A stretch of 64,000 bases of DNA, taken from NCBI RefSeq assembly GCF_001695855.1, contig NZ_MBSS01000012.1, positions 62,001-126,000 of the forward strand, given 5' to 3'. The translations under genes were made by a program, and so were the position numbers. Positions within the stretch are counted from its first letter, which is position 1. Every line of letters begins with the position of its first letter. The notes beneath the pieces were generated by a model that was not told the DNA's origin, did not search any database, and saw only the letters and a list, made by a program, of their open reading frames with translations. Source of the DNA: Ensifer sp. LC163 (GTDB lineage: Bacteria; Pseudomonadota; Alphaproteobacteria; Rhizobiales; Rhizobiaceae). Positions 28,846 through 30,094 of this stretch are shown one piece after another.

Positions 28846-29754
28846 CTACGCGGTCGCGCGCTCGCGTTTCATCTCGTTGCGCATGATAAAAAGCGAGGCG
28901 CCGAGGATCAGTACAGCCCCTAGCCAGAGATACCCGCTCGGCGCATAACCGAAAACGATCCAGCCGGCCAACACGTTGAGCGGCAGCTTGAGATCGTCGA
29001 AAGGCTGCACATAGGCGGCGTCGGCGACGGTATAGGCCAGCGTCAATAGATATTGCGCCACCACCGTCAGCAGCCCCGCCAGCACCAATAGCGCAAGGAT
29101 GGTGCCGCTCGGCACGGCAAATCCTGTCGACAGCGCCAGCACGCCGTTGATCGGCGTCAGAAGCACAAGCAACCAGACCGTTATCGTCTCCGGACGCTCG
29201 ATGCCCGTCAGGCTCTTGGTGATCAACGACGACGCCCCCCAGAGCAGTGCCGAGAGGATGGGCAGCAAGGCTGCCCAGGTGAAGCTTTCCGACCAGGGCT
29301 GCAGGATGATCGTGGCGCCAGCAAAGCCGACTGCCGCCGCAGCCCAGCGCGCAGCACCGACGCGTTCGCCGAGGAAGAGGCGCGCACCGAGAATGATGAA
29401 GAACGGCGACGTCATCACCAGCGCGATGGCCTGCCAGATCGGAACCGAAGCCAGCCCCGAAACCCAGGCCCCCACACCCAGCGCCGCAAGGGCAACGCGA
29501 ACGACGTGACGCCAGGGATAATCGGTGCGCATCGCCGACAAGCCGACCCGAAACAGGAACGGCAGGGAGAAGACGAGCGCGAATGCATATTGCCAGAAGG
29601 CGGTCGAAGTGGCGGAAAAGCCGAGCTGCATCGTCATCCATTGCGTGACGACATTCAGCAGAGCGAAGGCGACGCCGGCCAGTATCATCCAGGCGGCACC
29701 GGCCATGGCGCGGGAGGTGAAAAGTGCTTGGGTAGTCTCGCTCATGTCCTTCAT
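28846..29754 (-). CDS. ribN: EamA/DMT transporter, riboflavin importer RibN
   Basis: About 302 residues with ten predicted membrane helices in two EamA repeats, the drug/metabolite transporter fold. Sequence alone would only say DMT transporter. The identification as RibN comes from the FMN riboswitch directly upstream on the same strand and from the known rhizobial RibN family of riboflavin transporters controlled by such riboswitches. Two candidate starts, MKDMSETT (29754) and MSETT (29745), are three codons apart and neither has an ideal Shine-Dalgarno. The frame open further upstream reads through the riboswitch leader and is not coding. Confidence 0.87.
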   Translation of the reverse strand: MKDMSETTQALFTSRAMAGAAWMILAGVAFALLNVVTQWMTMQLGFSATSTAFWQYAFALVFSLPFLFRVGLSAMRTDYPWRHVVRVALAALGVGAWVSGLASVPIWQAIALVMTSPFFIILGARLFLGERVGAARWAAAAVGFAGATIILQPWSESFTWAALLPILSALLWGASSLITKSLTGIERPETITVWLLVLLTPINGVLALSTGFAVPSGTILALLVLAGLLTVVAQYLLTLAYTVADAAYVQPFDDLKLPLNVLAGWIVFGYAPSGYLWLGAVLILGASLFIMRNEMKRERATA

Positions 29755-29837
29755 CCGCAAACAGGGACCAACACAAATCAGGACGCATGAGCGCAGGGCG
29801 CGACAACGGACAGCGCTGCCCTTCGCACCCACGATCA

Positions 29838-30086
29838 TTCTCTTTCATCCGGACTATGACCGTCGGCTCCGGAGTTGCACCGGATCTGCTACCTTCCGGC
29901 GCAAAACCGCCGGAAGCGCTCGCGGGCTTGGGCTTACTGCATAATTTTCTCCTTAAATCGGATCCGATTTAAGGAGAAAATTATGCAGCAACTTTCAAGC
30001 GTCACAGCGTCCTTTGGGCGTCATATTTGACGCGTGGCGCTGTTAGCCCTTACCGCCGGTGGGGACTTTCACCCCGCCCTGAGAAC
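29838..30086 (-). promoter_or_regulatory. FMN riboswitch (RFN element) with greatly enlarged P3
   Basis: The minus strand carries the near-invariant RFN blocks in order: GGGCGGGGTGAAAGTCCCCA, then ACCGGCGGTAA, AGCCCGCGAGCG, a variable hairpin (CTTCCGGCG/CGCCGGAAG), GATCCGGTGCAACTCCGG, AGCCGACGGT and ATAGTCCGGATG. P1 can form from TTCTC and GAGAA. Between GGTAA and AGCCCGCGA, where P3 normally is, there are about 110 nt. These form a GGGCT/AGCCC base, a nested hairpin (ACAGCG/CGCTGT around GCGTCA/TGACGC) and a 52-nt perfect palindrome. It is followed by the ribN start about 85 nt downstream, so it probably controls riboflavin uptake in response to FMN. Confidence 0.95.
29937..29988. repeat. 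52-bp perfect palindrome inside the riboswitch P3
   Basis: Bases 29937-29962 are the exact reverse complement of 29963-29988, with no unpaired centre (the centre is GGATCC). The match breaks at the next base on each side. It is AT-rich compared with its surroundings. Each arm contains AAGGAGAAAATTATGCAG when read outward from the centre. Confidence 0.98.
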
Positions 30087-30094
30087 AGGCTGAG

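What the first reader, a model, noticed from the sequence alone, without database searches (positions are those of the whole stretch)
29937..29988. A 52-bp perfect palindrome embedded in an FMN riboswitch
Bases 29937-29962 and 29963-29988 are exact reverse complements with no spacer, in the position of the variable P3 stem of a complete FMN aptamer. The RNA could form a hairpin of about 24 bp. P3 tolerates length variation, but a perfect, AT-rich palindrome this long is unlikely to persist by chance. It could be an inserted palindromic element, an RNase III cleavage site that splits the aptamer (compare intervening sequences in rhizobial 23S rRNA), or a fold-back assembly artefact.
Basis: partly seen in the sequence, partly recalled or inferred. 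Interest (0 to 1): 0.85.

Follow-up and report, generated by a model that had tools for sequence, protein, structure and literature searches.

The report
Repeat element lodged inside a riboswitch
The perfect 52-base palindrome is one half of a common rhizobial repeat that landed in the tip of a vitamin B2 riboswitch hairpin, and its two arms apparently became perfect later, by a copying error that used one arm as the template for the other.

Summary
In detail: 29937-29988 is an exact zero-spacer palindrome (26-base arms) in the P3 stem of a complete FMN riboswitch (29833-30090, minus strand, 93.7 bits) upstream of ribN. But it is only half of the insert. The whole insert (core 29937-30042) is a RIME-like, two-palindrome repeat; its palB core matches 291 places in this genome, and I hold 105 full copies. 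Relatives without it have an ordinary short P3. In one 16-genome genus the repeat reached P3 tips at least twice independently (ribN, ribH2), probably three times, in one orientation. Ten of 14 tested copies are missing at the matching site of the sister genome, so it moved recently. The perfection looks derived: both orthologues carry the usual 48-base bulged palindrome; the window differs by two substitutions and a 4-base insertion, each copying the left arm. That is the footprint of quasi-palindrome template switching; in the sister genome the other palindrome is perfect instead. Most likely a tolerated passenger in a working aptamer. RNase III processing is untested; an assembly artefact is unlikely.

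The parts
29833..30090 (-). FMN riboswitch aptamer of ribN, complete, with a large insert in the P3 loop
   Evidence: Rfam RF00050, 93.7 bits, model 1-138
29937..30042 (-). RIME-like repeat, core (palindrome B 5', palindrome A 3' in the RNA)
   Evidence: nhmmer with a model of 65 distinct own-genome sequences: 1-102 of 102, E 4.8e-29; other copies
29937..29988 (.). palindrome A, 52 bp, perfect (the finding)
30004..30043 (.). palindrome B, imperfect, 40 bp
   Evidence: sequence; RNA fold of the insert, -61.8 kcal/mol, z -10.2
29922..29936 (-). 3' strand of the P3 stem and its junction with the insert
   Evidence: alignment to the Rfam model, sequence, comparison with the empty P3 of relatives
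30043..30057 (-). 5' strand of the P3 stem and its junction with the insert
28846..29745 (-). ribN-type EamA transporter; likely start at 29745 (MSETTQ...), not the upstream 29838
   Evidence: Pfam EamA E 4.6e-21 for the longer ORF 28846-29838; start codon and reading; the name ribN rests on relatives and recall, no ribN model was hit

Best explanation
A mobile, non-coding rhizobial repeat of the RIME kind inserted in the apical loop of P3 of the ribN FMN riboswitch, most simply in a common ancestor of the window's species and two close relatives. P3 tips vary and are not part of the ligand pocket (recalled), and the repeat folds on itself into two hairpins, so the aptamer probably kept working with P3 turned into a branched arm. 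In the window's lineage a replication template switch inside palindrome A then copied the left arm onto the right arm, removing a 4-base bulge and two mismatches and making the 52-bp perfect palindrome. Shown by sequence: repeat identity, empty sites, recurrent insertion in P3 tips, clustered differences that all match the left arm. Inferred: that the perfect state is the later one (from trees and from the usual form of the repeat), that the riboswitch still works, and that template switching was the mutational route.
For: Repeat: 181 arm matches, 105 distinct full copies held, palB-core pattern 291 matches in this genome against 1 for the reversed control. Empty P3: G003, G004, G006 and G015 have a short tetraloop tip; 75 of 80 named ribN relatives have P3 segments of at most 21 bases (74 by a strict reading, plus L140 read), the other five (L110, L113, L117, L123, L152) being longer. 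Full repeat found by profile in 6 of 142 distinct aptamer sequences, palindrome B alone in 2 more at E below 1e-6, the best match in sense orientation in all 8. Tree: window genome and G013 are sisters (99/97; 99.8/100), and G014 shares with G013 the 48-base form with the TTGG centre, so the 52-base form is best read as derived. Window differences: T to C, G to C and a 4-base insertion, all matching the left arm. In G013 palindrome B is the perfect one, 18-base arms around AACA (read from the sequence). The bulged form is usual: 91 of 100 scorable palindrome A sequences among 105 copies are 48 bases. Recent mobility: contiguous repeat-free sites in G013 for 10 of 14 copies. Aptamer sequence 5' of P3 unchanged between window and G013 (0 of 41 aligned; 2 of 41 against G014) while the P3 segment has 14 substitutions and 8 gapped columns.
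Against: No experiment shows ligand binding or regulation. The 3' part of the aptamer region is not more conserved than the leader after it (7 of 99 against 6 of 119, window versus G013), so sequence conservation supports function only weakly. Unconstrained folding gives the P3 base helix pair probabilities of 0.27-0.50 for the window and 0.08-0.15 for G014; the empty G003 ribN aptamer gives 0.01-0.02 and the empty G003 ribH2 aptamer 0.20-0.43, so this measure does not discriminate. That the three carriers form a clade has only 85/85 in the ribN tree and the place of G014 is unresolved in the linked-region tree (14.5/45). In the ribH2 gene tree G000 pairs with G014 (90/82). Ectopic conversion from an unseen perfect copy could give the same arms.
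Confidence: 0.77

Rival explanations
1. The insert is an exapted RNA-processing site: RNase III cuts the 24-26 bp hairpin and splits the aptamer or leader, as intervening sequences do in 23S rRNA, changing stability or switching of the ribN mRNA.
For: The RNA of the insert folds with a long unbroken hairpin (-61.8 kcal/mol, z -10.2, 0 of 200 shuffles as good). A review passage reports RNase III cleavage of transcripts carrying Correia elements (PMC10969869, passages seen). The 8 profile-positive aptamers carry the repeat in sense orientation, although among the 105 copies those between co-directional ORFs are more often antisense (27 against 11, mechanical ORF calls).
Against: No RNA data. Orthologues G013 and G014 keep bulged palindrome A arms, and the clade B ribN aptamers in which the profile finds palindrome B (G012, G008) lack palindrome A, so no constraint on the long hairpin is visible.
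Confidence: 0.15
2. The insertion inactivated or damaged the riboswitch and the locus is decaying.
For: Lower Rfam score than the empty ribN aptamers of G003, G004, G006 and G015 (93.7 against 111.6-114.7 bits); a related ribN aptamer in G001 seems to have lost its 3' half (29.3 bits).
Against: All model positions are filled and the conserved core letters are kept (alignment), so the lower score is mostly the cost of the long insert; orthologous inserts are kept in three genomes with nearly unchanged sequence 5' of P3.
Confidence: 0.08
3. The perfect arms came by gene conversion from another perfect copy of the repeat, not by template switching within this copy.
For: Other perfect or near-perfect palindrome A copies exist (L044, L237, L062, L267, L066, L009).
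Against: None of these six carries the window's arm variant throughout, and the linker beside it resembles that of G013 and G014 more than the usual copies. But only 105 full copies were read of roughly 290 palB matches.
Confidence: 0.07
4. Fold-back assembly artefact.
For: A perfect inverted repeat is a known artefact form (general knowledge); no reads were available.
Against: Unique riboswitch flanks on both sides, orthologous insert in G013 and G014, the same kind of palindrome elsewhere in the genome.
Confidence: 0.02

Closest known systems
RIME (Rhizobium-specific intergenic mosaic element; RIME1)
   Same: Short non-coding intergenic rhizobial repeat of about 100 bp with two large palindromes (size and two palindromes of RIME1 are recalled; that RIMEs are annotated intergenic repeats of S. 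meliloti was read in passages of PMC2573895)
   Different: The founding paper (Osteras 1995) is not held, so no letter-by-letter comparison was made. A RIME inside a riboswitch aptamer turned up in none of the listings or passages I saw (searches; passages 19, 20, 50, 51, 52, 53, 54, 69, 72); that is not proof that it is unpublished.
Bacterial MITEs that act in RNA (Correia/NEMIS, ERIC)
   Same: Mobile hairpin repeats that become part of transcripts (PMC10969869 passages)
   Different: Here the repeat sits inside a ligand-binding domain, at the tip of one helix
Quasi-palindrome correction by template switching (PMC8794818, passages seen)
   Same: One event makes an imperfect stem perfect by copying one arm
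   Different: The held text of that paper does not contain the word riboswitch; this is a riboswitch case whose order of states is suggested by sister and outgroup copies
Intervening sequences in helices of rhizobial 23S rRNA (recalled)
   Same: Extra hairpin at a tolerant helix tip of a structured RNA
   Different: No evidence of excision or cleavage here

Membership tests
FMN riboswitch (RF00050) | Multi-helix aptamer with conserved core | tested here: met
   93.7 bits against gathering 66.2, model 1-138
FMN riboswitch (RF00050) | Binds FMN and controls the gene | not testable with these tools
   no experiment
RIME repeat | Two palindromes in about 100 bp | tested here: met
   profile length 102; palindromes A and B measured in 105 copies
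RIME repeat | Many intergenic copies | tested here: met
   100 of 105 full copies lie outside ORFs of at least 100 codons called mechanically
RIME repeat | Confined to rhizobia | tested here: inconclusive
   palB-core pattern (at most 1 mismatch) in 26 of 121 genomes of the family, dense in few: G000 291, G084 171, G012 120; outside the family not searched
RIME repeat | Sequence identity with the published RIME1 | not tested
   paper not held; name recalled
TA-target MITE (IS630/mariner type) | TA target duplicated | tested here: inconclusive
   TA on both sides in 80 of 105 copies, but the ten empty sites in G013 read TA 4, CA 3, TG 1, AA 1 and a gap 1, so strict TA duplication is not supported
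Template-switch mutation | Clustered changes all templated by the opposite arm | tested here: met
   two substitutions and a 4-base insertion in the right arm, all matching the left arm
Template-switch mutation | Perfect state later than the imperfect one | tested here: met
   G000+G013 sisters, G014 outside, G013 and G014 bulged; caveat: G000+G014 in the ribH2 tree, which also leaves G013 and G014 apart

The most novel reading that the evidence does not exclude
The repeat has a preference for the tips of hairpins, as DNA or through selection, so that riboswitch variable loops are recurrent landing pads: a mobile hairpin that plugs into hairpins and is then tidied by template switching, giving riboswitches interchangeable side arms that may be cut or bound. 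In favour: P3 tips hit at least twice in one genus; 4 of 105 genome copies sit between flanks with a stem score of 8 or more (0.54 expected, reached by 0 of 200 shuffles), one of them exactly in a terminator-like hairpin tip that is empty in relatives (L003). Against: at a stem score of 6 there is no excess (4 seen, 3.79 expected), and most copies do not sit in hairpin tips.
Probability: 0.2. Interest if true: 0.75.

Novelty: new variant of a known kind. Interest (0 to 1): 0.5.

Why it matters
It shows a dispersed repeat repeatedly entering the aptamer domain of a riboswitch without removing the aptamer core, which makes the tolerance of P3 testable in nature. It also gives a before-and-after case, with sister species and an outside copy, for how a long perfect hairpin can arise in one step: in one species palindrome A is perfect, in its sister palindrome B. 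Annotators should expect large repeat inserts in FMN riboswitches of this genus, which lower model scores.

Tried and rejected
P3 drift: rejected, the insert matches a repeat model. Strict TA target duplication (mariner type): weakened by non-TA empty sites. General hairpin-tip targeting: only a modest excess of complementary flanks (mean 3.08 against 2.76 shuffled, sd of the mean 0.11; score 4 or more 30 of 105 against 21.4; 5 or more 17 against 9.3; 6 or more 4 against 3.79; 7 or more 4 against 1.51, reached by 13 of 200 shuffles; 8 or more 4 against 0.54, reached by none; the riboswitch copy itself is among the 105). Folding as a test of aptamer integrity: does not discriminate. A repeat identity for the long P3 of G111 and G253: 14 and 17 loose palindrome places with up to 3 mismatches against 0 and 1 for the reversed pattern, but genomes without such a P3 insert in hand also have 3-19, so suggestive only. 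The long insert in G134 and G266: 3 and 2 places, the riboswitch one included, not clearly a repeat. Clade B ribN inserts: profile support for G012 and G008 only; G007 (E 0.045), G011 (0.32) and G009 (3.1) are weak, and G005, G010, G001 and G002 were not hit. Chance of P3 hits: no formal estimate was made. Literature: searches; of these 13, 33, 46 and 73 returned nothing. Papers: passages only, of PMC2573895, PMC1273637, PMC8794818, PMC10969869, PMC3733652, PMC4418817, PMC2245857, PMC2873474 and PMC2267715; others in listings only.

Of the 14 joined flanks, 10 have contiguous sites in G013 that I read. Of the other four, one (L061) matches there as two halves about 110 bases apart, as expected of an occupied site; L050 has a weak spanning match in G013 that was not fetched; L008 and L262 have no clear G013 site.

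Scripts that failed and were rerun: wrong regular expression; no match. In one search an over-loose expression listed spurious copies; its counts are not used. In one search L152 was misread as a short P3 and a count of left-arm variants returned nothing; one search is the stricter reading.

Full report
What is there. The palindrome is real and exact, far beyond chance for this window (arm 26 against at most 11 in 30 Markov windows). It lies on the minus strand inside a complete FMN riboswitch, RF00050 at 29833-30090, 93.7 bits, with 119 bases between the arms of P3 where the model has 10. The gene below encodes an EamA transporter, taken as ribN from its riboswitch and relatives; the reading places its start at 29745, 87 bases past the aptamer.

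It is half of a repeat. The 25-base arm pattern has 181 matches with at most three mismatches in the 6.5 Mb genome, 0 for the reversed control. Extending the match shows a two-palindrome unit: in the RNA sense, palindrome B, a linker, palindrome A. A profile of length 102 from 65 distinct sequences finds 105 distinct full copies in the stretches I fetched, which are only part of the genome; 80 of 105 have TA on both sides. One hundred of 105 lie outside ORFs of at least 100 codons. The palB-core pattern has 291 matches in this genome and is dense in few genomes of the family (26 of 121 have any). I call it RIME-like from recall of RIME1; the founding paper is not held. That RIMEs are annotated S. 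meliloti repeats is from passages of PMC2573895.

It is an insertion. Of 80 named ribN relatives, 75 have a P3 segment of at most 21 bases and five have longer ones. The nearest named record, Ensifer adhaerens SD006 (L110, 98% ribN identity), carries the insert, so the window is taken to be from Ensifer or close kin. Within the 16 genomes of the genus, ribN of the window genome, G013 and G014 carries the full repeat, while G003, G004, G006 and G015 have a short tetraloop tip. The other FMN riboswitch, before ribH2, carries a full repeat at the same P3 tip in G004, G006 and G015 and not in the other 13. The ribH2 tree puts these three with the empty G003 (92/85), so one loss, one replacement by recombination, or two gains are needed. 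In clade B ribN aptamers, palindrome B alone is detected in G012 (E 1.5e-9) and G008 (4.8e-7), weakly in G007 (0.045) and G011 (0.32). In all, the full repeat is in 6 of 142 distinct aptamer sequences cut by a regular expression from the loci then held, and the best match is in sense orientation in these 6 and in G012 and G008. In four Rhizobium leaders (L149, L166, L169, L179) the repeat lies instead between the aptamer and the ribN start, antisense.

It moved recently. Joined flanks of 14 copies found contiguous, repeat-free sites in the sister genome G013 for 10 of 14. The dinucleotide at these ten empty sites is TA 4, CA 3, TG 1, AA 1 and a gap 1, so a strict TA duplication is not supported.

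How the palindrome became perfect. The ribN tree and a tree of the linked region both join the window genome with G013 (99/97; 99.8/100). The clade of the three carriers has 85/85 in the first and G014 is unresolved in the second (14.5/45). G013 and G014 share the 48-base palindrome A with a 4-base bulge and a TTGG centre. The window differs by T to C, G to C and a 4-base insertion, all in the right arm and all matching the left arm (alignment). Ninety-one of 100 scorable copies are 48 bases, so the bulged form is also the usual state. Seven of 105 copies, the window's included, have palindrome A arms of 19 bases or more and three have palindrome B arms of 17 or more. In G013 palindrome B of this same insert is perfect, with 18-base arms. 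This is the pattern expected of template switching within a quasi-palindrome, as described for RNA genes in PMC8794818 (passages). The ribH2 tree groups G000 with G014 (90/82); in neither gene tree are G013 and G014 sisters.

What it probably does. The aptamer core letters and all model positions are kept, and the part 5' of P3 is unchanged in the sister (0 of 41; 2 of 41 against G014) while the P3 segment has 14 substitutions and 8 gapped columns. The 3' part is not more conserved than the leader beyond it (7 of 99 against 6 of 119). I therefore think the riboswitch works and the insert is a passenger, but this is inference. The insert folds strongly (-61.8 kcal/mol, z -10.2) and would suit RNase III, which is untested.

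Why the tip of P3. Tolerance of a variable loop is the simple answer. A preference for hairpin tips is possible: four copies have strongly complementary flanks where 0.54 are expected, but there is no excess at an intermediate threshold (4 against 3.79).

Noticed in passing
L070 (G001), ribN leader: The ribN FMN aptamer seems to have lost its 3' half (29.3 bits), while the ribH2 aptamer of the same genome is whole (113 bits).
   Followed up: partly
L207 (G111) and L209 (G253): P3 of another genus carries a different palindromic insert; loosely similar palindromes occur at 14 and 17 places in these genomes.
   Followed up: partly
L226/L229 (G134) and L227/L230 (G266): A long insert in a later stem of an FMN aptamer (seen in L226) goes with two overlapping or adjacent partial Rfam hits per genome; 3 and 2 related places.
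   Followed up: partly
L149, L166, L169, L179: The same repeat lies between the FMN aptamer and the ribN start in four Rhizobium genomes, antisense.
   Followed up: partly
L003, repeat core from 1447: A copy sits exactly in the tip of a terminator-like hairpin whose repeat-free form is present in G013, G014 and G004.
   Followed up: yes
105 copies in G000: Between co-directional ORFs the repeat is more often antisense (27) than sense (11), yet the riboswitch copies found by profile are sense.
   Followed up: no
L161 and L163: Another palindromic stretch (GAGCATGATGCCGAAAAGTGTGAGCGG...) lies just upstream of the ribN riboswitch in Rhizobium johnstonii 3841 and R. leguminosarum Norway.
   Followed up: no
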